Of a DNA stretch of 64,000 nucleotides, positions 3,302-23,754 are shown in pieces. Each line of letters starts with the position of its first letter. Position 1 is the first letter of the stretch. Under the pieces are notes generated by a model that was not told the origin of the DNA, made no database searches, and saw only the letters and a list, made by a program, of their open reading frames with translations. A program made the position numbers and the translations under genes. This DNA is from Catellatospora tritici (GTDB taxonomy: Bacteria > Actinomycetota > Actinomycetes > Mycobacteriales > Micromonosporaceae), in the NCBI RefSeq assembly GCF_019083965.1, contig NZ_JAHRCY010000012.1, positions 62,001 to 126,000 of the forward strand, read 5' to 3'.

Positions 3302-3622
3302 ATGGCCATTCGGGTCGACGCGGAGACGATCCGCGTCGCATCGCAGGACGTCAACGACACTCGCATAGCCCTCGATCAGGATCTCAAGGATCTCCAGGCG
3401 CTCGCCGAGCGGCTGGGCGGGAGTTGGCGCGGCAACGCCGCGCTGCGGTTCCAGGAGCTCATGACCGATTGGCACCAGGAGGCGACCCGGCTCACCGAAG
3501 CCGTCGGTGACATCGCCGAACTCCTCAAGAAGACGGCCGCCGGTCACAGCGCCAACGAGGAGGAGCAGGCCGCGTCCTTCTCCAAGATCTCATCCAACTC
3601 GATGCGCGGCGCGCGGGACTAG
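3302..3622 (+). CDS. WXG100 family protein (ESX secreted partner)
   Basis: 106 residues. The ATG at 3302 is preceded by a strong GGGGAGG; an upstream in-frame ATG at 3209 would add residues with no family similarity. The protein is predicted to be a helical hairpin whose turn is the diagnostic W-x-G motif (Trp42-Arg-Gly44 within GGSWRGNAALRF), and the length is normal for WXG100 proteins. A second WXG100 gene begins 10 nt downstream. Such pairs usually form EsxB/EsxA-like heterodimers exported by EccC. A TACGCT hexamer at 3239-3244 could be its -10 element. The two paralogues cannot be matched to EsxA or EsxB with confidence. Confidence 0.92.
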   Translation: MAIRVDAETIRVASQDVNDTRIALDQDLKDLQALAERLGGSWRGNAALRFQELMTDWHQEATRLTEAVGDIAELLKKTAAGHSANEEEQAASFSKISSNSMRGARD

Positions 3623-3940: not shown

Positions 3941-3986
3941 ACGTGCCCGAACGTGCGCTCGCGACCGCGGCGCACGGCGGGCACGT
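3941..3986. terminator. Nested inverted-repeat hairpin between convergent genes
   Basis: Outer arms ACGTGCCCG (3941-3949) and CGGGCACGT (3978-3986) are perfectly complementary. Inner arms GTGCGC (3953-3958) and GCGCAC (3970-3975) also pair. It sits between the WXG100 pair (+) and the EccB-like gene (-), whose stop codon starts at 3987, so a bidirectional terminator is likely. Confidence 0.6.
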
Positions 3987-4229
3987 TCACTGCTGCGGAC
4001 CGGACACGCAGTCGATCGTCGGCTGGGCGAAGCACTGATCGTGCTTGATCTGGCCGTACACGAACAGGCCGACGAGCAGCAGTCCCACCAGGAAGAGTCC
4101 GCCGATCAAGGCGGCGCCCGCCCGCGCCAGCGGCAGATCGAGCGCGTCGGGCTCACCCAGGATCAACGCGTTCTTGATCCGACGGATGACGAACCGGTGG
4201 GCGTGCACCTGCTCCTGTCGGCTGTACAA
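3987..4229 (-). CDS. EccB-like N-terminal fragment: cytosolic stub plus one membrane helix only
   Basis: 80 residues. The start is a TTG at 4229 with GGGAGGAG seven nt upstream. The first 35 residues (YSRQEQVHAHRFVIRRIKN) match the characteristic cytosolic N-terminus of the T7SS core component EccB, and residues 37-58 are the single membrane helix ending in FVYG, as in EccB. A normal EccB continues for about 400 residues with a periplasmic repeat domain. Here the protein stops 22 residues after the helix, in a short tail with two cysteines (Cys66, Cys74). No remnant of the missing domain lies in the 60 nt downstream, which instead hold a hairpin. It is either a natural minimal EccB or the maintained stump of a truncated gene; the intact ribosome site and reading frame favour maintenance. 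Confidence 0.7.
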   Translation of the reverse strand: MYSRQEQVHAHRFVIRRIKNALILGEPDALDLPLARAGAALIGGLFLVGLLLVGLFVYGQIKHDQCFAQPTIDCVSGPQQ

Positions 4230-4298
4230 GGGTTGCTCCTCCCATCGACCGGTTACACAATACTAATCTCTGGCACCCGGGACGGCTGAAGGGGAACG

Positions 4299-5450
4299 AT
4301 GGCCTCAGACACGGCCGGCGGGGCGACACGTGACGGTCTGACGCACGGCCCGCGAACCGGCTCGATCCTGGCCGTGACCGCCCTCTTCATCGCGACACTG
4401 GCGCAGGTGCCGGCGGGGGCCTACGTGACCGCCGCCGGAACGGCGCTGGTGACGGTCGCGGTGGCAGTCGTGCTGAACCCGTTCGGGGAAGCCTCGGTCC
4501 TAGCCGGACACAGCAGGGTGCGGACCGGCGGGTCACGCCAGTGGGCGCCCACCGACAACACGCAGCCCGGATCGGCGGTGACCGCGCTGATGCCGACCCT
4601 GTCGGTGCACGAGGCGCAGCACCGAGCCCTGAGTTTCGGGATCGCCCGCGACCACCACGGCTGGTTCAGCCTGCTGGAGGTCGAACCCGAACGCGGCATG
4701 AGCGGCCACCGCAGCGTCGAGGTCTCGATGGGGCGCCTGGCCCGGTTGCTCACTGACGACACGCTGCCGATCACGTCGATCCAACTCGTCGCGACCTCGG
4801 TCCCGGTGCTCGGCCAGCTGGACGGTTCACCCGCCGCGCAGTCCTACGCGGCACTGGCCCACGGGTCGGCCGCGCTGGCCGCGCACGCCACCTACGCCGC
4901 CGTACGCTTCGGCAACGAGCAGGCCGCGCGGGCCGCCGCCGCGCGCGGTGGCGGACGTGCCGGGCTGGAGCGGGCACTGGGGGCGGCGCTGGGCCGGGTC
5001 GCGGCCGCCTTCACCGAGGACGGCCACCCCTCGGCGCCGCTGAGTTCCGAGCAGCTCCGCACCGCCCTGGCCGACGCCGTGTTCCCCGACGGCACGGTGC
5101 CCCCGTCAGCGGTCCGCGACCACGGAAAGCACTGGATCGCCGGTGAGCTGGCCCACCGTACGTGGCAGCTGCGCAACGGCGCCGCGCTCCCGCTCGGCGA
5201 GGTGCACGACCGGCTGGTCACGACCGGCTGTCGGACCGCCGCCACCTCGGCGACCATGCGCCGATCCACGCACGGGGGCGACCCGACGGTGCAGGTGCTG
5301 GTGCGGGTCGCGGTCCACCCGACGGCGCTGGAGACGGTGTCACAGCACGTCGTCGCGCAGCTGCGCCAGGTCGGCGCTGAGCTCCGGAGCCTGGCGGGCC
5401 AGGCCGACGCCGTATACGCCAGCGCACCGACCGGAAGCGAGCTGTCGTGA
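4299..5450 (+). CDS. eccE: Type VII secretion protein EccE-like
   Basis: 383 residues, ATG with AAGGGGA upstream. Two closely spaced N-terminal membrane helices (roughly residues 20-37 and 40-62, ending in VLNPFG) are followed by a long soluble domain, which is the EccE layout. In the mycobacterial ESX membrane complex EccE lies at the periphery next to EccB, EccC and EccD. The assignment rests on topology, length and position, since primary sequence in this family is poorly conserved. Its stop overlaps the GTG of the next gene (GTGA), which indicates translational coupling. It is divergent from the EccB-like gene across a 69-nt AT-richer gap that probably contains both promoters. Confidence 0.75.
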   Translation: MASDTAGGATRDGLTHGPRTGSILAVTALFIATLAQVPAGAYVTAAGTALVTVAVAVVLNPFGEASVLAGHSRVRTGGSRQWAPTDNTQPGSAVTALMPTLSVHEAQHRALSFGIARDHHGWFSLLEVEPERGMSGHRSVEVSMGRLARLLTDDTLPITSIQLVATSVPVLGQLDGSPAAQSYAALAHGSAALAAHATYAAVRFGNEQAARAAAARGGGRAGLERALGAALGRVAAAFTEDGHPSAPLSSEQLRTALADAVFPDGTVPPSAVRDHGKHWIAGELAHRTWQLRNGAALPLGEVHDRLVTTGCRTAATSATMRRSTHGGDPTVQVLVRVAVHPTALETVSQHVVAQLRQVGAELRSLAGQADAVYASAPTGSELS

Positions 5451-6097
5451 GCCGACCCGCCACCGCCACCGCCCCGCACCTGCCGGTCCGTGGTGCGGGA
5501 CTGCTGCTGGGCACCGACAGCCGTCGGCACGCGCCGGTGCTGCTGCGGCTATTCCACCCGCGGCCACGCCGGGTGGCGGCGCTGGGGGACGACTGGCTCG
5601 CCCGTCTGCTGGTGTTCCGCGCCCTGGCCCTCGGCGCCAGGGTCTGGGTGCGTACGCCCGACCCGCGGCCGTGGCTGGAGTTCGGGGCACAGGCGACCGG
5701 CCGACCCGACCGGCTGCTGACGGTCGCGCCGCATCATGCGGTGGCCGCCGAGGGCGCTCCCGCGCGACCGGTGCTGGTGGTCGACGCGCACGCGCTGGAG
5801 TGCGCCGAGCAGCCGCTGGCGGCCTGGCACACCCAACTGCAGCTGCTGCCGGCGGTGCCCAGCCTCGCCGGCGACCTGATCCGGCAGGCCGACGTCGTCA
5901 TCTCCCGGCAGCTCGACGAGCGGGCGGCTCATGTCGTCGCCGACGCGCTGCGGCTGCGCCAGCACGAGACCGCCCGGCTGCAGGCCCTGTTCTCCGACAT
6001 CGTCGCGGTGTTCGGTGCCGACCTCAACCACCGGGTGACCATCGCGCTGACACCGCTCGAGCAGAGCCTGGTGGGCCTGCCCGGCCGGGTCGGCTGA
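5447..6097 (+). CDS. Unknown protein coupled to eccE in the T7SS locus
   Basis: 216 residues, GTG start overlapping the eccE stop by 4 nt. No membrane helix or signal peptide is apparent. The sequence looks like a compact alpha/beta protein: hydrophobic strands (RGAGLLLGTD, GARVWVRTPDP, RPVLVVDAHALEC, ADVVISRQLD) alternate with helices, loosely resembling a Rossmann or P-loop fold. There is no Walker A motif, so if it derives from the EccC-type ATPase domain it is inactive. Co-translation with EccE and a convergent arrangement with eccC (7-nt gap) argue for a cytosolic accessory role in secretion. I do not recognise a named family. Confidence 0.75.
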   Translation: MSRPATATAPHLPVRGAGLLLGTDSRRHAPVLLRLFHPRPRRVAALGDDWLARLLVFRALALGARVWVRTPDPRPWLEFGAQATGRPDRLLTVAPHHAVAAEGAPARPVLVVDAHALECAEQPLAAWHTQLQLLPAVPSLAGDLIRQADVVISRQLDERAAHVVADALRLRQHETARLQALFSDIVAVFGADLNHRVTIALTPLEQSLVGLPGRVG

Positions 6098-6104
6098 CCG
6101 GACA

Positions 6105-9100
6105 CTAGAGGAGTTCCTGCGGCTCACGCCAGACCGTCTGGATCAGTTGTGTGCCACCGGCCCGGCTGGTGAACCGCGCCCGACCCGCTGGCAGCGGCCC
6201 GTTGCGCAGCTTGCCGATGAACGGAAGCTCGTCGGGGTTGCCGGACATCAGCAGGGTCGGGCTCTCCATCAGGCGCATCTGGTTGACCAGCGCCTCGCCG
6301 ACGGCCCGGCCCCCGCCGCTGGCCCGGCGGGCCAGCGTGACGTGGAAGCCGATGTCGGCACCCTGCTGCAGGTACCTGGTCAGCGGCGCCAGCGGGCTGA
6401 GCGAGCCGGGGGCGACCAGGTCGTAGTCGTCGACGACGAGATGTACGGCGCTGCCCCGCCACCACGAGCGGTCGCGCAGCTGCGTCGGCGTGACGTCGGC
6501 CGGGGGCAGCCGCTCCTCCATGATCTCGGCCAGGTCGGCGACGGCACCGGGGATGTCGCCGACCGAGGTGAGATAGCGCAGCATGTACTGGTCCTGGGCG
6601 AACTCCAGCAGCGACCGCTTGATGTCGATCACGACTAGTTTGGCCGTACGCGGGGCGCGGGTGTTCGACAGGCGCGGGTCGCGCTGGTTGCGCTCGGTCG
6701 TCTCGCGGATGAGGTGCCGCAGCAGGTTCGTCTTGCCGCAGCCGCTGTCCCCGAAGATCAGCAGGTGCGGGTCCTGGCCGCTGTCGAGCAGCACCGGGGC
6801 CAGTCGGCGCTCGTTGATGCCGATCGGGGTGCCCGTCATCGTCTTGTCGACGGCCTGGTGGAGTTCGGCGACGGGCAGCACGGCGGGCAGCATCCGCACC
6901 CGGCGGGCGACCGGGCCAGTCCAGGCCGCCCCCACTCGGGCGACCAGATCGGCCAGCCCGTCGCCGACCGTGTCGGCCCGCTGGTCGCCGTCGACGCGCG
7001 GCAGGGCGGTGAGGTAGTGGTACGGCCCGGCGGCCAGGCCCCGACCGGGGCGGTCCAGCGGCACGTTGGGCGCCACCCGGCGGTCTATCTCGGAGTCGGT
7101 GGGGTCGCCCAGGCGCAGTTCGAGCCGCTTGGGCAGCAGCTCGCGCAGTCCCGCGCGCACGTCGACGTAGCGCAGCGCGGTGACGATGACGTGGATGCCG
7201 AAGTTGAAGCCGCGCCCGGCCAGCTCCGTAATCGCGGCCTCCTGCGCCTCGAACTGGTCGCGCAGCACGAACCAGCCGTCGACGAACAGGAACACGTCCC
7301 CGAACGGGTCGTCGGAGACCTCGCCGGAGGCGCGCAGCCGCCGCCACGTCGCCATCGAGTCGATGCCGCGCTCGGCGAACACGGCCTCGCGCTCGTCGAT
7401 GATCGCGGTGACCTCGTCAACGGTACGCCGGACCGCGTCGATGTCGCGGCGACCGGCCACCCCCGACACGTGCGGCAGGTCGCGCAGCGGCAGCAGGCCG
7501 CCACCGCCGAAGTCGAGGCAGAACACCTGCACCTCCTGCGGCGTATGCGTCAGGGCCAACGCCGCGACCATGGTGCGGACCAGGTTCGTCTTGCCCGACT
7601 GCGGACCGCCCACGATGAGCACGTTGCCGCCGACGCCGTCGAGGTTGAGCAGCAGCGGATCGTTGCGCTGCTCCTTGGGCCGGTCCTCGATGCCGATCGG
7701 GATGACCAGGTTGCCGCCCGTCGCCGCGCACAGCCCTCGCCGTGGGTCGACGGCCAGGCCGCCGAGCAGCCCGTCCAACGTCGGCGGGGTGACCAGGGGT
7801 GGCAGCCAGACGGCATGGGCGGGCTGGCCCTGGCCGCGCAGCCGCCGCAGGAACATCTCGTACACGGTGATCTGCTGGTCGACCGCGGGTTCGGCACCGG
7901 CGCTCTCGAAGCCGGGCTCGCCGCCCAGCCCCGGGTCGGCGGCGGGCTGCGGCGCGCTCACCGGCGCCGACTCGTACCGCACCACGTGCTGGCCGGCACT
8001 GGCGACCTCGCTCGGGGTGGCCAGCGCCCGTGGCCGCCGGAACGGACCGGAGATGTAGCCGCCGCGGAACCGCAGCAGGCTCGTCGCATCCGGCTTGAGG
8101 TAGCCGTGCCCGCCCTCACCCGGCAGCTCGTTGGCGATCGGGCTGCCGAGCACCGCCCGGCTGTCCTCCGGCTTGTCGGTCCGCAGGCCGATGCGGTAAC
8201 CGAGGTAGCTGTCCAGGCCGCGCAGCCGTCCCTCCTCCATCTTCTGCGTGGCCAGCAGCAGGTGGACGCCCAGCGCGCGGCCGATCGCACCGATCTTGAT
8301 GAAGATGTCGAGGAACTCCGGCCGGGCCTTGAGCAGCTCGGTGAACTCGTCGCAGATGATCATCAGGCTGGGCAGCGGCGCCAGCTGCGCCCCCTGCCTG
8401 CGCGCCCGCTCGTAGTCGTACCGGCTGGCGTAGTCGGCGACGCCGTTGACCTTCTTGCGCAGCACCTCCTGCCGCCGGTCCAACTCCCCCAGCACCGCGT
8501 CGGACATCCGCTCCACCAGCGCCAGCTCGCTGGCCAGGTTCGTGATGGTGGCGCTGGTGTGCTGCAGCACCTCCATCCCCGCGAACGTCGCCCCGCCCTT
8601 GAAATCCACCAGCACGAAGTTCAGGTCGGTCGGCGAGTGGGTCGCGGCCAACGCCGTCACGATCGTGCGCAGCAGCTCACTCTTGCCCGAACCGGTACCT
8701 CCGATCAGGATCCCGTGCGGGCCCATGCCGTGGTGCGCCGACTCCTTCAGGTCCAGGAACAGCAGCTCGCCCTCGGGCGTCAGCCCGATCGGGATGCGCA
8801 GCCGGTCCCGGTCCGAGCGGGCGCGCCAGGTCACCCTCGTGTCCAGCGCCTCGAGATCGCCGATACCCAGCATGGCGGGCAGGTCGCTGCTGACCGCGCT
8901 CGCCATCACCGGCCCGTCCTGCTCCACCAGCCGGAACGGCGAGATCTGCCGGGCCACCGCGGACGCCGCCGTGCGGCTCAGCCCGTCTGCGGCACCCTGC
9001 GGCGTGGCCACGTCGTCCTGCAGCCGGTTCAGGCTGCCGTCCGCCGCGACCTGCAGCGACAGGACCTTGCCCGCGTCGCGCACCAGCACGCCGCTCAGGT

Positions 9101-10112
9101 CGATCCGGGTGACCCCCGACATCGGCCGCCGCCGCAGCAGGGCGGTGCTGGGCGCGTCACCGCCGTCCACGATCACGACGGTGTGCGGCAGCAGGACGCC
9201 GCCGTGCCCCTCCCGCCCGGCCAGATCCTCGACCAGCAGCTCCTCCAGCGCCGACAGGCTCTCCACCACCAGCCGCACCGGACCCGCCGCGTCGAGGTCA
9301 CCGGGGTGCAGCGCGTGCGGCAACCACTTCAACCAGTCCCACTGCTCGCGCCTCTTGTCGCTGACGACCGCGGCCACCCGCAGCTCGGCCGGCGAGTGAA
9401 ACGCCGCCAGCTGGCACACGACGGCACGCACCAGCGCGGTCGCCCCCTCGGCCGCACCGCGCACCTGGATGCGATCGAACGCCTTCACGTCGATCGCGAT
9501 CGGCAGGCCGCTCACCCGGGAGTGCGCCCGCAGGAACCGGCCCAGCGCGATCGCCGACAGCGGCTCCAGATCCTCCAGCGGCTTCATCTCGGGACGCACC
9601 AGCCGCGCGGCCGAGTTCAGGGTCCCCACCGACACCCGGGCGTGCAGGAAGTCTGGATCGTCGGCGCGGCACTCCCACAGGCGACCCGCCGGCACCAGCG
9701 ACCACAGCCCCGACGGCTCCGGATGGCGCCAGCGCAGCGCCGCCAGCTGCTCCTGCGCCGAGCGTTCCACCACCCGCCGCGACTGGCCGAGGTGCCGCAG
9801 GTACTCCCGCCGCAGGTGATCCAGCTGGGCGCGGCGGCCGCTGCCGGCGACGACGCCGACCACCACGCCGACCAGCGACACGCCGAAGACGATCGCCGCG
9901 ATCCACATGCGACTACCGCCACCGCTGCCGCCGCTGGTCATCATCAGCAGCATGGCGCCCACGCCCGACAGGGTCGGGACGACGGTGAACATCTGCCCCA
10001 GCCCACGCGGCCCCTGCACCGCCAGCTCGATGGGCGGTTTGAGCTGCACCTCGTACTGCGGCCGCGGGGGGCCCTCGCGTCGGCCAGGACGCGACAAGGG
10101 AGTCGTCCCCAT
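6105..10112 (-). CDS. eccC: Type VII secretion FtsK/SpoIIIE-family ATPase EccC (fused Ca+Cb)
   Basis: 1335 residues, normal for an undivided EccC. Two membrane helices near residues 40-85 follow a short cytosolic N-terminus. Three tandem P-loop domains have Walker A motifs GGTGSGKSELLRT (about residue 470), VGGPQSGKTNLVRT (about 837) and FGDSGCGKTNLLRHL (about 1120). The corresponding Walker B regions read LMIICDEF, VFLFVDGW and VHLVVDDYD, so domain 2 lacks the acidic pair, which is common in EccC. This motor powers export of WXG100 and related substrates, and the third domain normally binds the substrate export signal. It is transcribed away from eccD across a short divergent promoter region and ends 7 nt from the convergent unknown gene. 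Confidence 0.97.
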   Translation of the reverse strand: MGTTPLSRPGRREGPPRPQYEVQLKPPIELAVQGPRGLGQMFTVVPTLSGVGAMLLMMTSGGSGGGSRMWIAAIVFGVSLVGVVVGVVAGSGRRAQLDHLRREYLRHLGQSRRVVERSAQEQLAALRWRHPEPSGLWSLVPAGRLWECRADDPDFLHARVSVGTLNSAARLVRPEMKPLEDLEPLSAIALGRFLRAHSRVSGLPIAIDVKAFDRIQVRGAAEGATALVRAVVCQLAAFHSPAELRVAAVVSDKRREQWDWLKWLPHALHPGDLDAAGPVRLVVESLSALEELLVEDLAGREGHGGVLLPHTVVIVDGGDAPSTALLRRRPMSGVTRIDLSGVLVRDAGKVLSLQVAADGSLNRLQDDVATPQGAADGLSRTAASAVARQISPFRLVEQDGPVMASAVSSDLPAMLGIGDLEALDTRVTWRARSDRDRLRIPIGLTPEGELLFLDLKESAHHGMGPHGILIGGTGSGKSELLRTIVTALAATHSPTDLNFVLVDFKGGATFAGMEVLQHTSATITNLASELALVERMSDAVLGELDRRQEVLRKKVNGVADYASRYDYERARRQGAQLAPLPSLMIICDEFTELLKARPEFLDIFIKIGAIGRALGVHLLLATQKMEEGRLRGLDSYLGYRIGLRTDKPEDSRAVLGSPIANELPGEGGHGYLKPDATSLLRFRGGYISGPFRRPRALATPSEVASAGQHVVRYESAPVSAPQPAADPGLGGEPGFESAGAEPAVDQQITVYEMFLRRLRGQGQPAHAVWLPPLVTPPTLDGLLGGLAVDPRRGLCAATGGNLVIPIGIEDRPKEQRNDPLLLNLDGVGGNVLIVGGPQSGKTNLVRTMVAALALTHTPQEVQVFCLDFGGGGLLPLRDLPHVSGVAGRRDIDAVRRTVDEVTAIIDEREAVFAERGIDSMATWRRLRASGEVSDDPFGDVFLFVDGWFVLRDQFEAQEAAITELAGRGFNFGIHVIVTALRYVDVRAGLRELLPKRLELRLGDPTDSEIDRRVAPNVPLDRPGRGLAAGPYHYLTALPRVDGDQRADTVGDGLADLVARVGAAWTGPVARRVRMLPAVLPVAELHQAVDKTMTGTPIGINERRLAPVLLDSGQDPHLLIFGDSGCGKTNLLRHLIRETTERNQRDPRLSNTRAPRTAKLVVIDIKRSLLEFAQDQYMLRYLTSVGDIPGAVADLAEIMEERLPPADVTPTQLRDRSWWRGSAVHLVVDDYDLVAPGSLSPLAPLTRYLQQGADIGFHVTLARRASGGGRAVGEALVNQMRLMESPTLLMSGNPDELPFIGKLRNGPLPAGRARFTSRAGGTQLIQTVWREPQELL

Positions 10113-10146: not shown

Positions 10147-10174
10147 TCGACATGTGCGTAAGAATAGGTACTCT
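10147..10174 (+). promoter_or_regulatory. Predicted sigma70-type promoter for eccD
   Basis: TCGACA (10147-10152) and TACTCT (10169-10174) are separated by 16 nt in the eccC/eccD divergent gap, about 40 nt before the eccD start. The -35 matches consensus at five of six positions. This is a motif match only. Confidence 0.4.
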
Positions 10175-10213
10175 GCCGTGCAGCCGCGATACCCGACGGT
10201 CCCAGGAGTTCCC

Positions 10214-11581
10214 ATGGCAAACCCGGCCGCCACCGACACCAGCCACATCACCATCGTGGCGCCCAGCGCGCGCGTCGTGGACCTGGCACTTCCGTCGGCA
10301 CTGCCCCTCGCCCACGTGCTGCCGCGCCTGCTGGACCTGGTCGGCGGCATCACCCCGGACGGTGTCGGCGGCTGGACTCTGGCCCGATTCGGACAGTCCC
10401 CACTGGACCCCGACGGCTCGCTCACCGACCACCAGATCCGCGACGGAGAACTGCTCTACCTGCGCCGGCGCGAGCAGGCCGGCGCACCGGCCGTCTTCGA
10501 CGACGTCGTCGACGCCATCGTCATCGCCCAGCGCGACGCCGACAACTGGCACGCCCAGACCGCGAAGGCGTTCGCGGTCGCGTTCGCGGCCCTGGCCCTG
10601 CTCGGCGGCCTCGGCGGGCTGCTCGCCCAGCGCATCACCCCACCGCTGGGCGGCGTCGCCGCCGGGCTGATCGCGGTCGTACTGCTCATGTCGGCCGCCG
10701 TCACGGTCCGCAGCCCCGGCGCGACGACCGTCGCCCGCCTGCTGTCGGTCGCCGCGGTGCTATACGGTGGCGCCGCCGGCTTCCTGGCCGTCGAGGACAT
10801 CGCGTCACCGGATTCGGCGTCGCAGGTGCTCGTCGGCGCGACCGCGGCCGCGGTGCTGGCCGCGGTGACCAGCCTGGCTGTGCGCAGCCACGGCGCCATC
10901 ATGCTCCCGCTCGGCGTGGGCGCCATCGCCCTGGCAGTCGGCGTCGAGCTGCACATCCTCGCCGACCTGAGTGGGCCCACAGCCGCGGCCGTCATGCTCG
11001 TGCTCGGGCTGGCCGCGCTGCCCACACTGCCGATGCTGGCATTCCGGCTCGCGGGCCTGACCGTGCCGAGCGTCCCGACCGGGCCGCGCGACGTGCGCAA
11101 CGACACCGAGGAGATCGACGCCGCCGACGCGACCCGCCGCAGTGAGCAGGCCGGGCGGCTGCTGGCCGGTCTGCTGGCGGCGTTCGCGCTGGTGGAGACG
11201 GGTGCCGTCGTCGGGGTCGTGGCGGGTGGCGGCGGCTACGCCGTGGCGCTGGGGGCCACGGTGGCGCTGCTGCTGTGGTCGCGGTCGCGGGTGTTCCAGC
11301 TGCGCTGGCAGCGGATCCCGCTGCTGTGTGGCGCGTTCCTCGCCAGCGCCGCGACGGCCGTCGGCGCGGCGGCCGCGCTGCCGGACCCCGCCGGCGGCGC
11401 CGTGGCCGCGGCCATCGTCGCCTTCGTCGCGGTCGCCGCGCTCACCTACGCGGCGACGCCCGCCGGGCAGGGGCGGTCGCCGGTCTGGGGTCGCACGCTC
11501 GACCTGGTCGAGACGACCCTGACCGTCGCGGTCGTGCCGCTGGCCGCAGCGATCGCGGGAGTGTTCGCCGGTCAGTTCTGA
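10214..11581 (+). CDS. eccD: Type VII secretion integral membrane protein EccD
   Basis: 455 residues. The ATG at 10214 is chosen because AGGAG lies 5 nt upstream and the ubiquitin-like domain begins directly (ITIVAPSARVVDLALPSA); an in-frame ATG at 10154 would add 20 unlike residues. A YukD/ubiquitin-like domain (about residues 10-95, with GDGELLYLR near its end) is followed by roughly eleven membrane helices from residue 120 to the C-terminus (VAVVPLAAAIAGVFAGQF), the standard EccD architecture. In ESX systems EccD dimers form the membrane vestibule around EccB and EccC. Its last 10 nt overlap the 3' end of the convergent mycP gene. Confidence 0.95.
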   Translation: MANPAATDTSHITIVAPSARVVDLALPSALPLAHVLPRLLDLVGGITPDGVGGWTLARFGQSPLDPDGSLTDHQIRDGELLYLRRREQAGAPAVFDDVVDAIVIAQRDADNWHAQTAKAFAVAFAALALLGGLGGLLAQRITPPLGGVAAGLIAVVLLMSAAVTVRSPGATTVARLLSVAAVLYGGAAGFLAVEDIASPDSASQVLVGATAAAVLAAVTSLAVRSHGAIMLPLGVGAIALAVGVELHILADLSGPTAAAVMLVLGLAALPTLPMLAFRLAGLTVPSVPTGPRDVRNDTEEIDAADATRRSEQAGRLLAGLLAAFALVETGAVVGVVAGGGGYAVALGATVALLLWSRSRVFQLRWQRIPLLCGAFLASAATAVGAAAALPDPAGGAVAAAIVAFVAVAALTYAATPAGQGRSPVWGRTLDLVETTLTVAVVPLAAAIAGVFAGQF

Positions 11582-12814: not shown

Positions 12815-13159
12815 ATGACAGACAAGACCACTGTGGACCCGAAAGCATTGGACGATCACCATGCCAAGCTCGTCGGCTACGCCGATCGGGTCGAGCGTCT
12901 GCGCACCGCCCTGGGTCAGATCCGCGACTACATCCCGGAGGCCGCGGAGGGCAGCCCGACGTACGGTTGGCCGTTCGGCACCCTAAGCCGCGGCCAGGCC
13001 TTCTACGCGCAGCACGAGCGCCTCCACAAGAGCATCGACGACGCGCTCGCCCAGGCGGGCGTCGACATCGGCGAGCTGGCCGCGCGGCTCGAAGCCGCCG
13101 CCGCCGCGTATCGCAACGCCGACGACCACGGCGCCAGCGTATTCCGCAAGACGGCCTGA
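12815..13159 (+). CDS. EspC/WXG100-like T7SS substrate-type protein
   Basis: 114 residues, no signal peptide. It is predicted to be two long amphipathic helices (LDDHHAKLVGYADRVERLRTAL and the region FYAQHERLHKSIDDALAQAG) followed by a third helix rich in Ala (ARLEAAAAAYRNADD). This pattern is typical of the EspC-like (ESX secretion-associated) branch of helical-hairpin substrates. The C-terminal YRNADDHG fits a Yxxx(D/E)-type export signal. It is the first gene of a five-gene forward operon (12815-15866) preceded by a good promoter. Family placement is by pattern, not by alignment. Confidence 0.75.
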   Translation: MTDKTTVDPKALDDHHAKLVGYADRVERLRTALGQIRDYIPEAAEGSPTYGWPFGTLSRGQAFYAQHERLHKSIDDALAQAGVDIGELAARLEAAAAAYRNADDHGASVFRKTA

Positions 13160-13172
13160 TCGGCGGCCCGCG

Positions 13173-14180
13173 ATGAGTCAAGACCCCACCCACCGCGCCG
13201 TCCAGAAGTGGATCCCCGAGGGCGATCCCGACTGGGAGGACTGCGCCACCCGCGTCATCGTCATGGGCGCCCCGAACTACCTGCGTGAGGCCGGCCGGTT
13301 GTACTCCGACCTGCTGTTCAATCTGCGGTTCTTCATCGACGACATGCGGAATGACCTCGACGTGGTCAAGGCGAAATGGACCGGAACCGCGGCCGACCGG
13401 TTCCGCGACAAGACGCTGCAGATCATCGCCGCGCTGGAGCACATCGACGAGAAGATGATCGGGTACAGCGGCATCAAACCCAGTCTGGAGCTCGCCGCCG
13501 ACCAGCTGCAGCACGCACAGCGAGAGATGCCGGTGCCCGAGGACGTCGCCCAGGCGATCGTCGAGAGCCACAACATGGTGGTCAACGGCATCTGGACCGG
13601 CGTCGACGAGGGCGCGTTCCGATCCGCGCTGTCGGAACTGGACCAGGGCTTCTTCGCCGACGTGGCCAGCGACATCTTCGACAGCCCCGAGGGCGACGCG
13701 CAGGACCGGTACAACGACCTCAACCACCAGTACGTGGTGACCGCGTCGGGGATGCCCGAGGGATTCGCCCCCAGGACCGTCGGCTTCACCGACCCCAGAG
13801 ACATCCACGATCCCGTGCTGCTGCCACCCGGCAGCGGTTCGGGCCTGCGGGACGGCTTCGAGGCGCCGCCGGCCGACGTGCCGAAGCCACCGAACCTGAA
13901 GACCGGTCGAGGCGGTGGTGGCCTCGGCGGCGTCGGCGGGGTCGGCAGCCTCGCCGGCGCGGGCGGCTTCCCACCGACCGGTACGGCGTTCGGCAAGCCC
14001 GTCGCCACGGGCGCGTGGCCGAGTGGATTCGCCGGTGGTGCCCTCAGCGCCGGGTTCGGCGCCCCCGGCGGCGGCGCGGGCGGGCTCGGCGCGACGGGCA
14101 CCGAGTTCACCACCGACCTGGTCGAGGACGACGACCCGTGGCGCGACCTCGGGGAGGCCTCCGATGACGTCATGCGCTGA
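13173..14180 (+). CDS. WXG100-domain protein with Gly-rich C-terminal region (PPE-like layout)
   Basis: 335 residues. Residues 1-190 are helical and include a W-x-G turn (VKAKWTGTAADRFRDK, near residue 70), as in WXG100 and PPE-type T7SS proteins. Residues 190-245 are a Pro-rich linker. Residues 245-315 are a low-complexity Gly/Ala/Phe region (GGGGLGGVGGVGSLAGAGGF and similar), ending in an acidic tail (TTDLVEDDDPWRDLGEASDD). A helical T7SS targeting domain fused to a Gly-rich tail resembles mycobacterial PPE proteins, but the PPE motif itself is absent. It lies 13 nt after the EspC-like gene and is probably an exported surface or pore-associated protein. Which partner it needs is unknown. 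Confidence 0.75.
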   Translation: MSQDPTHRAVQKWIPEGDPDWEDCATRVIVMGAPNYLREAGRLYSDLLFNLRFFIDDMRNDLDVVKAKWTGTAADRFRDKTLQIIAALEHIDEKMIGYSGIKPSLELAADQLQHAQREMPVPEDVAQAIVESHNMVVNGIWTGVDEGAFRSALSELDQGFFADVASDIFDSPEGDAQDRYNDLNHQYVVTASGMPEGFAPRTVGFTDPRDIHDPVLLPPGSGSGLRDGFEAPPADVPKPPNLKTGRGGGGLGGVGGVGSLAGAGGFPPTGTAFGKPVATGAWPSGFAGGALSAGFGAPGGGAGGLGATGTEFTTDLVEDDDPWRDLGEASDDVMR

Positions 14181-14192
14181 CCGGACGAACGC

Positions 14193-14594
14193 ATGACCGC
14201 CCCCGGCGCGACCCCGGCGCCCTCCGGCCAGCCGGCTGCCACACCCCCGGCGGGGCCAGTGGGGACGGCCGGCGAGCCTGCCGCCGCACCGACGAAGCTG
14301 CTGGTGCACGTCGAGGCCCTGCGGGAGGCCCACCGCCGGCTGACCGGTCCTGCCACCGACCAGCTCGTCGAACTCCACCGCCGCATCGGCCGGATCGACA
14401 TCTCCTCCCCCGGGTTCGGTGTCATCGGCATCGGCGCCAACAAGAGTCACACCGCCAGCCAGGCCCAACTGTTGGACCAGGTGATCGCCCTCAACGATCG
14501 GCTGGCCGCGATCGCGACCGCGCTGAAGATCGCCGCGGACGCCTGGCAGGACACCGACAGCGACGGCATGGCGAATCGGGACACCCATGGTTGA
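14193..14594 (+). CDS. Small helical protein of the ESX substrate operon, unrecognised
   Basis: 133 residues. A disordered Ala/Pro-rich stretch (residues 1-33) is followed by a helical region (LLVHVEALREAHRRLTGPATDQ and QLLDQVIALNDRLAAIATAL). There is no membrane segment or signal peptide. Its stop overlaps the next start by 8 nt, indicating translational coupling. The helical composition and operon position suggest a WXG100-related partner or a cytosolic chaperone for the neighbouring substrates, but the W-x-G motif is missing, so the role is undetermined. Confidence 0.75.
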   Translation: MTAPGATPAPSGQPAATPPAGPVGTAGEPAAAPTKLLVHVEALREAHRRLTGPATDQLVELHRRIGRIDISSPGFGVIGIGANKSHTASQAQLLDQVIALNDRLAAIATALKIAADAWQDTDSDGMANRDTHG

Positions 14595-15393
14595 CACCAC
14601 CGGCGCAGCCACGTCCGCCGCCTCGACCGCCTCATCGACCGTCGCGACCCAGGCCGCCAAGAGCAGCGCCCCGACCGGTCACGGCAGCGGCGACCACGCC
14701 TCGGTGGCCGCCATGCTCACCGCGATCGCGGCCCTGGGCGTGTGCGTCGTGATCGAACGGCAGTTCGTCAAGGCTGCCATGTCCGCGGCGCTGGCGGTGG
14801 CGAACCCGGACGGCATCCAGACGGCCGCCCAGGACTGGAACGCACTGACGCTCACCGTCCGGCAGGCGAGCAACGCCGTCAGCCAGGCGCGCGCCGCCAC
14901 CGACCGGCGCTGGATCGGCGCCGACCAGGCGGCCTTCGCCGCGGCGGTGGAACGGCTGAACGCCGAGGTCAACCGGCTGGGTGAGGTCGCCGCCGGCATG
15001 AGCGACCTGCTCAAGCAGGCCGACTCCGCGTTCGCGGAACTCTACGAGATCGTCCTGACGATCTCGCTGATCAGCCTGGCCGCGCTGCTGCTGCTGACCG
15101 CCCTGCAGGCCACCCCGCTGGCCCCGATCGCCCGTGCCGCGATCACGATCATCGGCGCCACCGTCCCGCCGATCGTGGTGTCGCTGGTGGACAGCACCGG
15201 CACCGCCCTCACCCAGATCGGGCAGGCGATGACCACGCTCACCGGCGCACCCCAGCAGTCCGACGCCGTCGGGCGCGCCATCAGCACCGGGGTACGCGAG
15301 GGGTCGGCCGCCGCGGCCAACTACCAGGACAAGAAGGCGGACGACAAGAAGGCTCCGGTGCCCGCCACCGGCACCACCCCGGCCAAATCCTGA
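14587..15393 (+). CDS. WXG100-like membrane-interacting protein
   Basis: 268 residues. A Thr/Ser/Ala-rich N-terminus is followed by a helical pair with the turn RRWIGADQAAFAAAVERL (W-x-G, near residue 111), as in WXG100 proteins. Strongly hydrophobic segments follow at about 155-180 (IVLTISLISLAALLLLTAL) and 182-205 (APIARAAITIIGATVPPIVVSLV), and the C-terminus is Lys-rich (KKADDKKAPVPATG). The combination of a T7SS-type helical domain and a hydrophobic hairpin suggests an exported protein that inserts into a membrane or binds the secretion complex. It is coupled to the gene upstream by an 8-nt overlap. There is no named family. Confidence 0.7.
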   Translation: MVDTTGAATSAASTASSTVATQAAKSSAPTGHGSGDHASVAAMLTAIAALGVCVVIERQFVKAAMSAALAVANPDGIQTAAQDWNALTLTVRQASNAVSQARAATDRRWIGADQAAFAAAVERLNAEVNRLGEVAAGMSDLLKQADSAFAELYEIVLTISLISLAALLLLTALQATPLAPIARAAITIIGATVPPIVVSLVDSTGTALTQIGQAMTTLTGAPQQSDAVGRAISTGVREGSAAAANYQDKKADDKKAPVPATGTTPAKS

Positions 15394-15877: not shown

Positions 15878-16663
15878 TCAGCCCGGCACGCCGTCCGACC
15901 CGGCCGAGGAGCGCAGCAGCTCGGTGTAGGCGCCGCTGCGCCAGATCGGCACGCCGTACGCGAGCACGGCGGCCACCGCCGGGTCGGTCACCGGCTCGCC
16001 CCACGCCGCCCCGACGACCCGCGCCGTGACCTCGGCCTGTGCCCTGCCCACGGCGTCCCGCACCGCCGCGACCTCGCCCGCGACCACGTACACCGGCCAC
16101 AGGCGCCCGCCCAGGCCCTCGATCCGCAGTTCCGCCCGCACCACCGCGTCCGCGCCACCGGCCGCCGCGGCGCGGGCGACCCGGACGTCGTCGACGGTCG
16201 TCTCGTCGGCCGCACCGGGCAGGACCCGCCACCGGTCGCTCGGCCCGAGCGCGAACGCTTCCACCACCGGCCGACCCGCGGCGAGCTCGCCGACGGTGCG
16301 CACCGCGGCGGCGGACAGCCCGAACTGCTCGCCGGTGCCCGGGTTGAGCAGCAGGCCGAGATCGGGCGGCCAGGTCGCCGCGAGCGGGGCGAGCCGGACC
16401 AGCCGCCACCGCGCGCCGTCGCCGTGCACTGCCGCCAGGTGGTCGTAGGACGTGTACAGCACCGCCGCGTCGGGCGGTCCGGCGACGACCGGCAGCTGAA
16501 CTCCCGGCCCGGCGTCGGGCGTCTGTGTCGGCGCATACAGCACCCCGGCGCTCAGCGCCCGCAGCAGGCCGGGCAGTGATCCGGTCAGTACGGCCGCCGC
16601 CACCGCCTCCCGCATGGCCGCGTCGACCGCCGCGGCCGTCTGGTCGAAGGTCCGCTCGCTCAT
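15878..16663 (-). CDS. SseB-like domain protein, possible immunity/partner of the upstream T7SS effector candidate
   Basis: 261 residues from the ATG at 16663, which overlaps the upstream stop as ATGA; an earlier in-frame start inside that gene is less likely. The N-terminal half fits the SseB N-terminal domain: a helix, then PGVQLPVVAGPPDAAVLYTS, a ...WRLVRLAPLAATWPPDLGLLLNPGTGEQFGLS block and a following helix. The C-terminal half has a second alpha/beta region (RAELRIEGLGGRLWPVYVV). There is no signal or membrane helix, so it is cytosolic. SseB-type domains are repeatedly found beside secreted toxins in actinobacteria, so an immunity or chaperone role is plausible but unproven. It is the last gene of a four-gene reverse operon with overlapping starts. 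Confidence 0.75.
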   Translation of the reverse strand: MSERTFDQTAAAVDAAMREAVAAAVLTGSLPGLLRALSAGVLYAPTQTPDAGPGVQLPVVAGPPDAAVLYTSYDHLAAVHGDGARWRLVRLAPLAATWPPDLGLLLNPGTGEQFGLSAAAVRTVGELAAGRPVVEAFALGPSDRWRVLPGAADETTVDDVRVARAAAAGGADAVVRAELRIEGLGGRLWPVYVVAGEVAAVRDAVGRAQAEVTARVVGAAWGEPVTDPAVAAVLAYGVPIWRSGAYTELLRSSAGSDGVPG

Positions 16664-18258
16664 CGTGACTCGTCTCGTGCCACGTCGTCGGCCCGCGCCG
16701 CACCGAACGTCGCGCCGCCCGTGGCCGCTCCGGCGGCGGTGACCGCCGGGTCGGAGACCCGCGTCCACGGCGGCGGTCCGACCCAGCTCATCGCGGGCAC
16801 GTCACGGCCCGGTCCGCCGCCGATCACCCACTGCTGCGCCCCGCCCGGATAGCTTTCCAGTGCGCCGGTCGCGTCGACTCGCGACGACGAGACCTGCCCG
16901 ATGATGCCGTCGCCACCGCTGCGCATCGGCATCGGGTCACCCGCGGTGAACTCGCGCACCAGCATCCGATCCCGCGGATGCACGACCCCGGCCGCGTCGG
17001 TGTCCCAGTCGTGCGGAATGGCGTAGTCGGTGCGGTACTTCGCCTCGCTCGACATGGTCAGCAGCTCACGCGACTCTCCGTAGTACGAGGCGGACGCGTA
17101 TCCGGTGTCGGTGTACACACTGCCCATCGTCATGTTCTTCGGCACCACCGGATGTTCGACGATCTTGGCTGGGTCCACGAACGAATCGGTGACATCGGGG
17201 CGGATGACGTTCGGATCGCGCGGAGGCTTGAACCCCAGCTCGTTGAGGGAGTGCGGCTGCATCGGCTCGCTGCGGCGCAGCACCGCGGCGGCCTCGCTGT
17301 CGCTGAGGGTGGCCACGTCCGCGACGCCGAGACCGGCGCGTTCGAGCGCGGTCGTGCCCCGGGTCATCGCGTTCCACCCGTGGCCGACGCGGTCCAACGC
17401 GTCCAGCCGGGAGGCGACCTCGGAACCCCGGGTCGCGGCCACGCTGGCACCGGCGCCCCCCGAGGCCACCGCGGCCACGGCGTCGGGGGCCAGGTGCCCG
17501 ATGGCACGGGCGGGACTGTGCCGCCAGGTGTCCCAGTCCAGCACGCCCTTGCCCACCCCGACCGCGAAGTCGTCGGGGTGCTCGACCGCCGCGTTGACGG
17601 CCTCGCGCAGCCCTCGCACCGCTCGGGCGTGGTCCTCGGGGCTGAGGACCGCGTTGACGATGCCGAGCCGGGAGGACGACACCGCCAGGTCGAGCAGGCC
17701 GGTGACGCTCTCGGCCACCCCGGTCCACAGTTCCAGGCGCTGGTGCTCGATCCAACTGAGGATGCTCTCCCGCGGCGCCCCGGCCGCCGCCGCCTTCAGT
17801 TGCCGTACGGCGGCCGCCACGGCTTCGGCGAACTCAGCCCGGGTCGACTGCTCCAGCGCGGCCGCGTCGCGGTCGGCCTGCTGTGCCGCCGCAGCCGCCT
17901 TGGCCTGCTCGGGGTCCTGCGGCGGCGCTCCGGCCACCGAGTAGTCCGGCACCCCGGTGGCTTCGCTCTGGCGGCGCAGCTCACGAGCCCGCGCCGCGCC
18001 CTGCTGTGCCCGTTGCAGCGCCTGCGCGTAGTCGGCCAGCGCCGCCGACGCCTCGCCGAACGCGTCCGCGCCCTGCCGCAACCGTGCGGGCAGCCTGCCC
18101 ACGCTGGTGCGGTACGCCTGCGCCGCGCGGCCGCTCCAGTGCTCCTCCCCCGCCGCCTCGTCCACGGCGGCGGCGGTGTCCCGGGCCAGGTCGGCGACGT
18201 CGCGCAGGGTCTGCGCCAGCGCCGCGACGGCGCGCGGATCGCCGCTGTCGGCCGTCAT
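16660..18258 (-). CDS. T7SS effector candidate: helical WXG-like N-domain plus distinct C-terminal domain
   Basis: 532 residues from the ATG at 18258 (CGGAGG upstream; overlaps the previous stop as ATGA). Residues 1-110 are a WXG100/EspA-type helical domain containing EEHWSGRAAQAYRTS. A long coiled-coil, Ala/Gln-rich helix (about 110-220) and a helical middle domain follow. The last 130 residues, from NELGFKPPRDP, change composition entirely: mixed alpha/beta with many aromatic and polar residues (MGSVYTDTGYASASYYGES, PHDWDTDAAGVVHPRDRM, ESYPGGAQQWVIGGG). This is the layout of polymorphic T7SS toxins. PGGAQQW faintly recalls the Gln-containing loop of TNT-type NADases, but the preceding sequence does not fit, so I leave the activity open. 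The flanking small genes are immunity or adaptor candidates. Confidence 0.7.
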   Translation of the reverse strand: MTADSGDPRAVAALAQTLRDVADLARDTAAAVDEAAGEEHWSGRAAQAYRTSVGRLPARLRQGADAFGEASAALADYAQALQRAQQGAARARELRRQSEATGVPDYSVAGAPPQDPEQAKAAAAAQQADRDAAALEQSTRAEFAEAVAAAVRQLKAAAAGAPRESILSWIEHQRLELWTGVAESVTGLLDLAVSSSRLGIVNAVLSPEDHARAVRGLREAVNAAVEHPDDFAVGVGKGVLDWDTWRHSPARAIGHLAPDAVAAVASGGAGASVAATRGSEVASRLDALDRVGHGWNAMTRGTTALERAGLGVADVATLSDSEAAAVLRRSEPMQPHSLNELGFKPPRDPNVIRPDVTDSFVDPAKIVEHPVVPKNMTMGSVYTDTGYASASYYGESRELLTMSSEAKYRTDYAIPHDWDTDAAGVVHPRDRMLVREFTAGDPMPMRSGGDGIIGQVSSSRVDATGALESYPGGAQQWVIGGGPGRDVPAMSWVGPPPWTRVSDPAVTAAGAATGGATFGAARADDVARDESR

Positions 18259-18692
18259 CGCGAACCTCCGTCCGGTTCCCGGAACTGCTGGTCGAGCTGG
18301 CGACTGCGCTGATCGCTGAGGCGGTTCACCCACGCGGTGAGGCTGCCCACCCCCTGGTGGGACTTCGGGTCCGGCGCGTCGGGGGCGTCGGCGTTGCCGA
18401 ACCGATCCGCGTCCACGTACGCCTTTGCTGTCGCGGCCAGCCGCTCTGCCATCTCCCTGGTGTCGCCGTGCACCAGCCGCATCGCGTAGCACCAGGCGTC
18501 GAGGAAGTCGTCGACCGCCGCCTCGACCTCGTCGGAGCCGAAGTCCGGCACGGTGTCCATCAGCTCCGGCTTGGCGTCCTTGATGCGACCCGACGCCGCG
18601 GCGAGCCGGTTCAGCCGGATCGCCGCGTCCGCCAGGCTCGCCGGTTCGACCCGGAACCCGTTGACCTGCCCGCCGACGACCGGCTCAGCCAC
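18255..18692 (-). CDS. Helical adaptor-type protein of the T7SS effector operon
   Basis: 145 residues from a GTG at 18692 that overlaps the preceding stop by 8 nt; its own stop overlaps the effector start as ATGA. It begins VAEPVVGGQVNGFRVEPASLADAAIRLNRLAAA, the usual opening of EspC-like proteins, and continues with helices (EVEAAVDDFLDAWCYAMRL, MAERLAATAKAYVDADRFG). YVDAD is a good Yxxx(D/E) export motif. Tight coupling with the effector gene suggests it is a co-secreted partner or targeting factor, as small WXG100-like proteins are for LXG and EspC-type toxins. No enzymatic motif is seen. Confidence 0.75.
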   Translation of the reverse strand: MAEPVVGGQVNGFRVEPASLADAAIRLNRLAAASGRIKDAKPELMDTVPDFGSDEVEAAVDDFLDAWCYAMRLVHGDTREMAERLAATAKAYVDADRFGNADAPDAPDPKSHQGVGSLTAWVNRLSDQRSRQLDQQFREPDGGSR

Positions 18693-21357: not shown

Positions 21358-21699
21358 TCAGCCGCCGGTGACGGAGACCAGCAGCGCGACCGCGTCCAGC
21401 CACCGCGCGCACAGCTCGGCGCGGTCGAGGGAGTCACCCACCGACTCGGCGGCGGCGAGCCAGGACCGGGCCAGCTCGGTGCCTGGCCCGCCGGGCAGCG
21501 GTTCGGGCAGCTCGGCGGCGTACGCGATGCCGCCCCGCCGGACCACCTCCGCCAGGAACCACAACGCCGCCGGCGTGACGCCCAGCGCGTGCGCCTGGAC
21601 CGCGGCGATCGGCGCCGCCTCGCCCAGCAGCAGGTCACGCCCTCCGGGTTCGCTGAGCCCCGCCCGGATGAGCCCCGCCAGGTCACCGGTGCCGGTCAT
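21358..21699 (-). CDS. Small helical protein after the cysteine-peptidase-like effector, immunity candidate
   Basis: 113 residues, ATG at 21699 overlapping the upstream stop (ATGA). It is all-helical by composition (LAGLIRAGLSEPGGRDLLL, ALGVTPAALWFLAEVVRRGG, ELARSWLAAAESVGDSLD, CARWLDAVALLVSVTGG). No catalytic motif, signal or membrane segment is seen. Position directly after, and coupled to, a predicted toxin of the T7SS type makes an immunity function the leading idea. I find no family. Confidence 0.7.
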   Translation of the reverse strand: MTGTGDLAGLIRAGLSEPGGRDLLLGEAAPIAAVQAHALGVTPAALWFLAEVVRRGGIAYAAELPEPLPGGPGTELARSWLAAAESVGDSLDRAELCARWLDAVALLVSVTGG

Positions 21700-23249: not shown

Positions 23250-23626
23250 CGCGGCGTCCTGGGCCCGCGACGGTGCCGTTCCAGGGTCCGGACGGCGGCG
23301 GCCTCGGCCGCCCGGTACGCGGCGATCGACTCCTCCAGGCCCGTGGCCACGCGCGCGACCAGCGCGCTGATCGCCTTCATCTCGGCGACCCAGTCTCGGG
23401 CGAAGTCCAGATGCGCCGCGCCCGCGCCGAACGGGCCGAACGCCTGCGCGTCGACGGTGGCGTGCCCGTCGAGACGTCCCCGGTACACGTCGAGTCCGTG
23501 CTCGACCGAGCGGGTCTTCGCGGCGATGGCCGCGGCCTGGTCGGCGTGGATCCGGTACCCGCCGGCCGAAGCGGGTCCGGCGGCCCTGCCTCCGTTGATG
23601 GTGATCCCTCCAGGTGTGCGTGCCAC
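23246..23626 (-). CDS. EspC/WXG100-like partner, first gene of the cysteine-peptidase effector cassette
   Basis: 126 residues, GTG at 23626; the ribosome site is weak. ITINGGRAAGPASAGGYRIHADQAAAI is followed by long helices (LDFARDWVAEMKAISALVARVATGLEES, AAYRAAEAAAVRTLERH) in the hairpin pattern of ESX secretion-associated proteins. AYRAAE fits the Yxxx(D/E) export signal. Its stop overlaps the effector start. Pairing of such a protein with a large effector suggests it is the targeting partner. It is divergent from the mannanase gene over a 264-nt gap. Confidence 0.75.
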   Translation of the reverse strand: MARTPGGITINGGRAAGPASAGGYRIHADQAAAIAAKTRSVEHGLDVYRGRLDGHATVDAQAFGPFGAGAAHLDFARDWVAEMKAISALVARVATGLEESIAAYRAAEAAAVRTLERHRRGPRTPR

Positions 23627-23754
23627 TGGACCGACTGTCGTTTCCGGACAGGAGCCGACCGTCGTTCCCGGAACCGCTGTGCCCTGCCACGATACCGGCG
23701 CCGCACCACCGCGGGGCAGCGCCGGCGGGGGCCGAACCGGTCGGTGCGGGAAAG

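What the first reader, a model, noticed from the sequence alone, without database searches (positions are those of the whole stretch)
3987..4229. A minimal EccB: only the cytosolic stub and membrane helix remain in the T7SS locus
The 80-residue product matches the conserved N-terminus of EccB (YSRQEQVHAHRF plus one helix) but lacks the large periplasmic domain that normally links the ESX protomers outside the membrane. The start, ribosome site and frame are intact, the tail has two Cys, and a terminator-like hairpin follows directly, so it reads as a maintained gene. No full EccB is in the window although EccC, EccD, EccE and MycP are present. Either the complex works without the periplasmic domain, or a full-length EccB is encoded elsewhere and this is a regulatory or competing anchor.
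Basis: partly seen in the sequence, partly recalled or inferred. Interest (0 to 1): 0.72.

Follow-up and report, generated by a model that had tools for sequence, protein, structure and literature searches.

The report
Secretion anchor without its outer domain
A soil actinomycete carries a type VII protein-export machine whose EccB part has been cut down to its membrane anchor; a relative in another genus keeps the same short version and a more distant genus made similar cuts on its own, which suggests that the machine's outer chamber, thought important in mycobacteria, can be done without.

Summary
Confirmed and extended. Window 3987-4229 (-) encodes an 80-residue protein that matches only positions 4-66 of the 474-position EccB profile (PF05108, 43 bits, cut-off 27): a cytosolic helix and one membrane helix, no periplasmic domain. 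It sits in the usual eccB place of an ESX locus with EccC, EccD, EccE, MycP and a WXG100 pair. It is not a random local truncation: Rhizocola hellebori, another genus of the family, has the same locus with an 80-residue orthologue (62% identity, same TTG start, two conserved cysteines); neutral drift does not explain that identity. In a second genus, two of four species carry 62-63-residue versions where siblings carry full-length EccB; an EccC tree makes this three losses, each just behind the membrane helix. The 35 other EccB genes measured have 447-543 residues. The genome's one full-length EccB lies in another locus and appears to serve a second EccC. Published structures give ring-building contacts to the retained part, but stabilising ones to the lost part too. 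Best reading: a maintained 'mini-EccB' that clamps the EccC/EccD ring of an ESX system without the extracellular EccB chamber. Function is inferred; I have no expression or secretion data. I found no published description in the searches made.

The parts
3987..4229 (-). mini-eccB: 80 aa, cytosolic N-terminal part (about 1-36), membrane helix (39-57), tail with Cys66 and Cys74
   Evidence: ORF; PF05108 43.2 bits, positions 4-66/474; orthologue L063:9421-9660 62.5% identical over 80 of 80 residues; hydropathy
4236..4242 (-). ribosome-binding site GGAGGAG; R. hellebori has GAGGAGGAGCAAGCC before the same TTG
   Evidence: sequence
3941..3986 (.). hairpin between the convergent WXG100 and mini-eccB genes; not a typical intrinsic terminator (no T run)
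   Evidence: fold (17 of 200 shuffles as good); scan
3302..3622 (+). WXG100 protein a (probable secreted partner)
   Evidence: PF06013 58.5 bits
3632..3925 (+). WXG100 protein b (probable secreted partner)
   Evidence: PF06013 50.4 bits
4299..5450 (+). eccE, divergent from mini-eccB as in the full-EccB loci that have eccE
   Evidence: PF11203 44.7 bits, cut-off 23.7; arrangement
5447..6097 (+). o216, conserved ESX-locus protein of unknown family
   Evidence: 28-43% identity in 11 other loci; no family match, no significant PDB match
6105..10112 (-). eccC, EccCa and EccCb parts, three Walker A motifs present
   Evidence: TIGR03924 818 bits, TIGR03925 782 bits; motifs
10154..11581 (+). eccD
   Evidence: PF19053 200 bits, PF08817 65 bits
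11572..12732 (-). mycP, subtilisin-like; shortened between the catalytic Ser and the membrane helix
   Evidence: PF00082 129 bits; spacing
12815..15393 (+). four genes (EspC-like, o335, o133, o268) with EspC/WXG100-type similarity; relatives of all four lie beside the R. hellebori locus

Best explanation
The gene is a retained, shortened EccB that keeps the part working inside and under the membrane and has lost the part that builds the extracellular chamber. Shown here: it is homologous to the N-terminus of full-length EccBs of the EccE-linked ESX type; it stands in the eccB slot; its sequence is conserved across two genera; similar losses arose three times in the tree; its genome has as many EccB genes as clear ESX EccC genes. 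Taken from published structures: the EccB N-terminal tail and helix run along the inner face of the membrane and couple neighbouring EccD barrels, and the ring of EccB membrane helices forms a basket that holds the EccC membrane helices. Inferred: mini-EccB does the same here, so the EccC/EccD/EccE ring assembles and exports WXG100-type substrates without the EccB chamber, while MycP sits nearer the membrane on a shorter tether. The two tail cysteines may pair neighbouring tails outside the membrane (speculative).
For: Only the N-terminal part matches EccB, and a profile of it hits ESX-3 EccB3 records 6umm, 6sgz, 6sgw and 6sgx, which hold just that part. Slot: in 29 of 29 fetched loci with both a full EccB and EccE the two are divergent; mini-EccB has the same place in the window and in L063. 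Orthologue of exactly 80 codons in R. hellebori (NZ_BONY01000101.1): 62% identical against 58% EccC, 55% MycP, 48-49% WXG, 46% EccD, 43% o216, 40% EccE; dN/dS 0.36, and 0.29 for residues 1-60; neutral simulation reached that identity in 0 of 20,000 runs at distances 0.6 and 0.83 and in 7 of 20,000 at 0.4. Recurrence: G048 (63 aa) and G379 (62 aa) against full-length siblings G378 and G380; EccC tree needs 3 changes; EccC, EccD and the WXG pair of those two loci are open and 73-98% identical to G378. Nonsynonymous changes on the two short branches: 8 of 25, neutral fraction 0.74, p 1e-5. Clear ESX EccC and EccB numbers match in G000, G369, G048 and G379. Roles of the retained part: PMC8131196, PMC8232910, PMC6986878 passages. 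MycP of both mini loci is shorter between Ser and the VNP motif (47 and 42, against 51-52 in all 24 others that could be measured).
Against: No expression, assembly or secretion data. The selection test on the pair is modest by itself (codon-position chi-square p 0.054; tail dN/dS 0.54). The EccC branches of the mini pair are long (stem 0.68, window 0.88), as relaxed constraint would also give, and the tree tool warns that the place of long rows is unsure; short EccB is not clustered on the tree (82 of 500 shuffles as low). The full-length sister branch shows 0 nonsynonymous of 3 changes, so the short branches may be somewhat relaxed, and the losses there could be recent. The G048 and G379 loci gave no EccE match (nor did their full-length siblings) and no mycosin beside them, so they are a different ESX type. 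The MycP difference rests on two related sequences, and 17 mycosin hits could not be measured. [quoted passage not shown]
Confidence: 0.66

Rival explanations
1. First step of decay: the ESX system is being lost, the periplasmic domain went first and the remnant has not yet eroded.
For: Long EccC branches of the mini pair; G048 and G379 are single species beside full-length siblings; none of the ten other genomes of the window's genus had a match to this EccE at E 1e-8 or better.
Against: Shared by two genera at about 0.8 synonymous changes per site with 62% protein identity; the other Ecc genes of the window locus are open and the three Walker A motifs present; EccC, EccD and the WXG pair of the G048 and G379 loci are open.
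Confidence: 0.15
2. Mixed ring: full-length EccB from the second ESX system enters the complex in trans, and mini-EccB tunes or competes with it.
For: A full-length EccB exists in all four mini genomes.
Against: Clear ESX EccC and EccB numbers match in each genome. The full EccB of G000 lies with WXG, MycP and o216 genes, while EccC, EccD and MycP of the second system lie on another contig with no EccB found; R. hellebori shows the same split. The mini N-terminus is 38-49% identical to EccBs of EccE-linked loci, 37-41% to two EccE-less ones and 31% to the C45 protein.
Confidence: 0.12
3. Another protein of the locus replaces the lost domain, for example the WXG100-like membrane protein o268 or the neighbouring EspC-like genes, perhaps linked through the two tail cysteines.
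For: Relatives of o268 and o133 were found only in the window and R. hellebori loci among the stretches compared; both tail cysteines are conserved.
Against: The pair is one evolutionary case; G048 and G379 have no cysteine tail; family scans and hydropathy of the locus proteins show no new large extracellular domain, though o216, o335 and the tails of others have no fold assigned.
Confidence: 0.06

Closest known systems
EccB of actinobacterial ESX/T7SSa systems (PF05108, TIGR03919; structures of EccB3 and EccB5)
   Same: N-terminal cytosolic part and single membrane helix; place in the ESX locus next to EccE
   Different: The whole periplasmic domain (about 400 residues) is missing; a short tail with two cysteines follows the helix in the window and R. 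hellebori
ESX-5 complex without MycP5 (PMC8131196, passages and section 7)
   Same: The membrane and cytosolic ring is largely kept while the EccB periplasmic assembly is disordered, the nearest studied state to a chamberless ring
   Different: There EccB is still full-length; here the domain is not encoded and MycP is present
T7SSb of Firmicutes (recalled, not tested)
   Same: EssC-driven WXG100 export without an EccB periplasmic chamber
   Different: T7SSb has EssA/EssB/EsaA and no EccB, EccE or mycosin of this kind; the window system has EccC, EccD, EccE and a mycosin

Membership tests
EccB (PF05108) | Match above the curated Pfam cut-off | tested here: met
   43.2 bits against 27
EccB (TIGR03919 equivalog) | Match above the curated NCBIfam cut-off for the full protein | tested here: not met
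   43.6 bits against 154, positions 2-60 of 457
EccB | N-terminal linker helix and single membrane helix | tested here: met
   Profile of the stub and seven relatives hits EccB3 and EccB5 chains over this part; hydropathy 39-57
EccB | Periplasmic domain that forms the chamber | tested here: not met
   Match ends at profile position 66 of 474; no second EccB match in the window
EccB | Assembles with EccC and EccD in the membrane ring | not testable with these tools
ESX/T7SSa system | EccC (EccCa+EccCb), EccD, EccE and a WXG100 pair in one locus | tested here: met
   TIGR03924/03925, TIGR03920, PF11203, PF06013 all above cut-off
ESX/T7SSa system | Mycosin (TIGR03921 equivalog cut-off) | tested here: inconclusive
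   227.6 bits against 278.75; subtilase PF00082 above cut-off
Pseudogene of eccB | Sequence drifting neutrally, not shared with relatives | tested here: not met
   Orthologue of equal length in another genus; identity reached in 0 of 20,000 neutral runs at d 0.6 and 0.83, 7 of 20,000 at d 0.4

The most novel reading that the evidence does not exclude
Some actinomycetes run chamberless ESX systems: a mini-EccB clamps the EccC/EccD ring and MycP sits close to the membrane, so the EccB-MycP extracellular chamber is an optional addition and not part of the minimal translocation engine. This state arose at least three times by loss of the domain just behind the membrane helix.
Probability: 0.45. 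Interest if true: 0.75.

Novelty: new variant of a known kind. Interest (0 to 1): 0.6.

Why it matters
Whether substrates pass through the EccB-MycP chamber, and whether the EccB periplasmic domain is needed to assemble or run a type VII machine, is open. Structural papers propose a conduit (PMC8131196) and an oligomerisation role (PMC6986878) from the shape of the complex; deleting the whole eccB5 gene abolishes secretion (PMC10597459, table passage) but removes anchor and chamber together. Natural ESX loci that keep the anchor and lack the chamber separate the two functions, in soil organisms where this can be tested.

Tried and rejected
Rejected: (1) sequencing or assembly error, because R. 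hellebori carries the same short gene in a syntenic locus. (2) Periplasmic domain encoded apart: PF05108 searched over six genomes at E up to 0.1 gave, besides the EccBs described, only G369:C17 (E 0.003, stop inside) and G048:C1:4970644 (E 0.09), both below the cut-off and not near the loci; not looked into further. (3) Short EccBs (open frame under 300 aa) as a common form: in samples that overlap, 1 of 52 matches (128 genomes), 3 of 116 (111 genomes) and 1 of 141 (296 genomes) were short, all of them cases described here. The family listings are capped; among the rows shown, the only others under 300 aa were G061:C62, G348:C103 and G377:C155, which lie at contig ends. L065 is that cut G061 gene and was not counted as a mini. 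(4) Plasmid origin: no match in the plasmid collection.

Led nowhere: genome-contig scan with the single protein (nothing confirmed); PDB search for EccE and o216 (best E 0.51); structure prediction (jobs interrupted, then tool off). MycP spacing: the first script mis-parsed L075 and L121; one search gives 52 for both. In one search, 22 non-mini mycosins have a 51 or 52 from the script and two second mycosins (L072, L065) were counted by eye (52); 17 hits could not be measured, among them the mycosins of G048, G379 and G378 (18-21 kb from the two short eccB genes) and of the L076, L077, L150 and L151 loci. L065 and L079 are among the 24 although no whole EccB was seen in the fetched stretch. 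Tether lengths (26-36) come from 17 rows and for L075 (40). Library searches for a description of short EccB; none seen in the listings; most subscription papers are not held.

Full report
What is there. The ORF at 3987-4229 (-) is real, 80 aa, TTG start, with a good ribosome site. Its one match above a curated cut-off is the N-terminus of EccB: PF05108 43.2 bits against 27, profile positions 4-66 of 474; the full-length model TIGR03919 is hit at 43.6 bits against 154. A profile of the stub and seven relatives hits EccB3 and EccB5 chains in the PDB over the linker helix and membrane helix. The membrane helix is at 39-57; a tail with two cysteines (66, 74) follows. Around it lie two WXG100 genes, eccE, o216, eccC, eccD and mycP; three Walker A motifs are present in EccC. 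Window = G000:C4:62001-126000; the genome has one other EccB, full-length, at C45:114451-115803.

Is it only here? A search of 354 genomes of the family with this EccE gave as best relative G369:C101. That locus (L063) has the same genes around a stub of exactly 80 codons, 62.5% identical. A named scan identifies it as Rhizocola hellebori NBRC 109834, NZ_BONY01000101.1, Micromonosporaceae. Both genes start with TTG behind GGAGGAG-type sites and share KxDxCxAxPxxxCVxxxQQ in the tail. None of the ten other genomes of the window's genus had a match to this EccE at E 1e-8 or better.

Is it constrained? Window against R. hellebori: dS 0.83, dN 0.30, ratio 0.36 (0.29 for residues 1-60, 0.54 for the tail); differences by codon position 26/16/33, chi-square p 0.054. 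At protein level the stub (62%) is the best conserved of eight compared genes: EccC 58, MycP 55, WXG 48-49, EccD 46, o216 43, EccE 40. Neutral simulation gave mean identities of 43, 31 and 22% at distances 0.4, 0.6 and 0.83; 7, 0 and 0 of 20,000 runs reached 62.5%. So the gene is maintained, though the test on 80 codons is modest.

Ancestry and recurrence. Of 37 fetched loci with a full-length EccB, 29 also have EccE, and in all 29 the two genes are divergent; the 35 EccBs measured have 447-543 residues from the N-terminal match. Mini-EccB has the same place. In a second genus (g39, family f13, four genomes plus one of another genus searched) the same slot holds 63 residues in G048 and 62 in G379, but 457 and 470 in G378 and G380; the N-terminal parts are 90-95% identical and translations downstream show no remnant. 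These loci gave no EccE match, the full-length ones included. The EccC tree of 33 proteins puts G379 with full-length G378 (100/98) and the window with R. hellebori (100/100), and needs three changes (long rows flagged as unsure; 82 of 500 shuffles as low). Because the full EccBs of G378 and G380 are 69% identical throughout, regain is unlikely; I read three losses. EccC (84-91%), EccD (73-82%) and the two WXG proteins (85-98% and 79-93%) of the short loci are open and close to G378. On the short branches 8 of 25 polarised changes are nonsynonymous, neutral fraction 0.743, p 1e-5; the full-length sister branch has 0 of 3, and the date of the loss is unknown. Elsewhere short forms were not found: 1 of 52, 3 of 116 and 1 of 141 matches, all already described.

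Could another EccB stand in? EccC searches show two clear ESX EccCs in G000 (C4, C3), three in G369 (C101, C74, C48), two each in G048 and G379, and as many EccBs over the cut-off. Weaker EccC-like hits (32-38%) in G000 and G369 were not counted as ESX EccC. The C3 locus of G000 has EccC, EccD and MycP without EccB; the C45 locus has EccB, WXG, MycP and o216 without EccC; R. hellebori shows the same split (C48, C134). So the full EccB most likely serves the other system. This is counting, not proof.

Mechanism. [quoted passage not shown] EccB and EccC membrane helices interlock neighbouring protomers (PMC8232910, passages). [quoted passage not shown] Without MycP5 the periplasmic EccB5 assembly is disrupted while membrane and cytosolic regions stay more similar. 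The retained 60 residues are therefore a ring-building part. In ESX-5 MycP caps the EccB chamber and touches its R4 domain (section 7 read). In the two mini systems MycP is shorter between catalytic Ser and the VNP motif (47 and 42 residues; 51-52 in all 24 others that could be measured, 17 could not) and has a tether of 22-24 residues to the membrane helix (26-40 in 18 others). This agrees with a cap lowered onto the membrane, but it is one evolutionary case.

Verdict. It is EccB-derived by ancestry but fails one defining feature of EccB, so I call it mini-EccB and file it as a new variant of a known kind. I saw no published description of natural EccB proteins lacking the periplasmic domain (searches listed under Tried and rejected). 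Papers: passages of PMC6986878, PMC8131196 (plus its section 7), PMC8232910, PMC4791881 and PMC10597459; of all others only search listings were seen.

Noticed in passing
window 5447-6097 (+): o216, a protein without Pfam, NCBIfam or significant PDB match, conserved beside EccE in many of the fetched Micromonosporaceae ESX loci: an unnamed ESX component.
   Followed up: partly
window 16660-18492 (-): ORF with a T7SS_signal domain (PF21725, 29.3 bits) and an unmatched C-terminal part: candidate exported effector of this system.
   Followed up: partly
window 21696-23690 (-): Long ORF with a weak WXG100 N-part (PF06013, E 0.0015, below cut-off); by eye the C-terminal part looks like a cysteine peptidase: second candidate effector.
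   Followed up: no
G000:C3 (L150) and G000:C45 (L075); R. hellebori C48 (L151) and C134 (L121): The second ESX system is split over two places: EccC-EccD-MycP without EccB, and EccB-WXG-MycP-o216 without EccC.
   Followed up: partly
window 12815-15393 (+): EspC-like, o335, o133, o268 genes; relatives of o133 and o268 were seen only in the R. hellebori locus among the stretches compared; o268 has a WXG100-like part (below cut-off) and three hydrophobic segments.
   Followed up: partly
L082:7997-8926 (-): A SUKH-3 immunity-type gene (PF14433) between EccD and EccB in G048 of the second genus.
   Followed up: no
window 19045-21204 (-): Serine/threonine kinase fused to a concanavalin-like lectin domain near the T7SS genes (PF00069, PF13385).
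   Followed up: no
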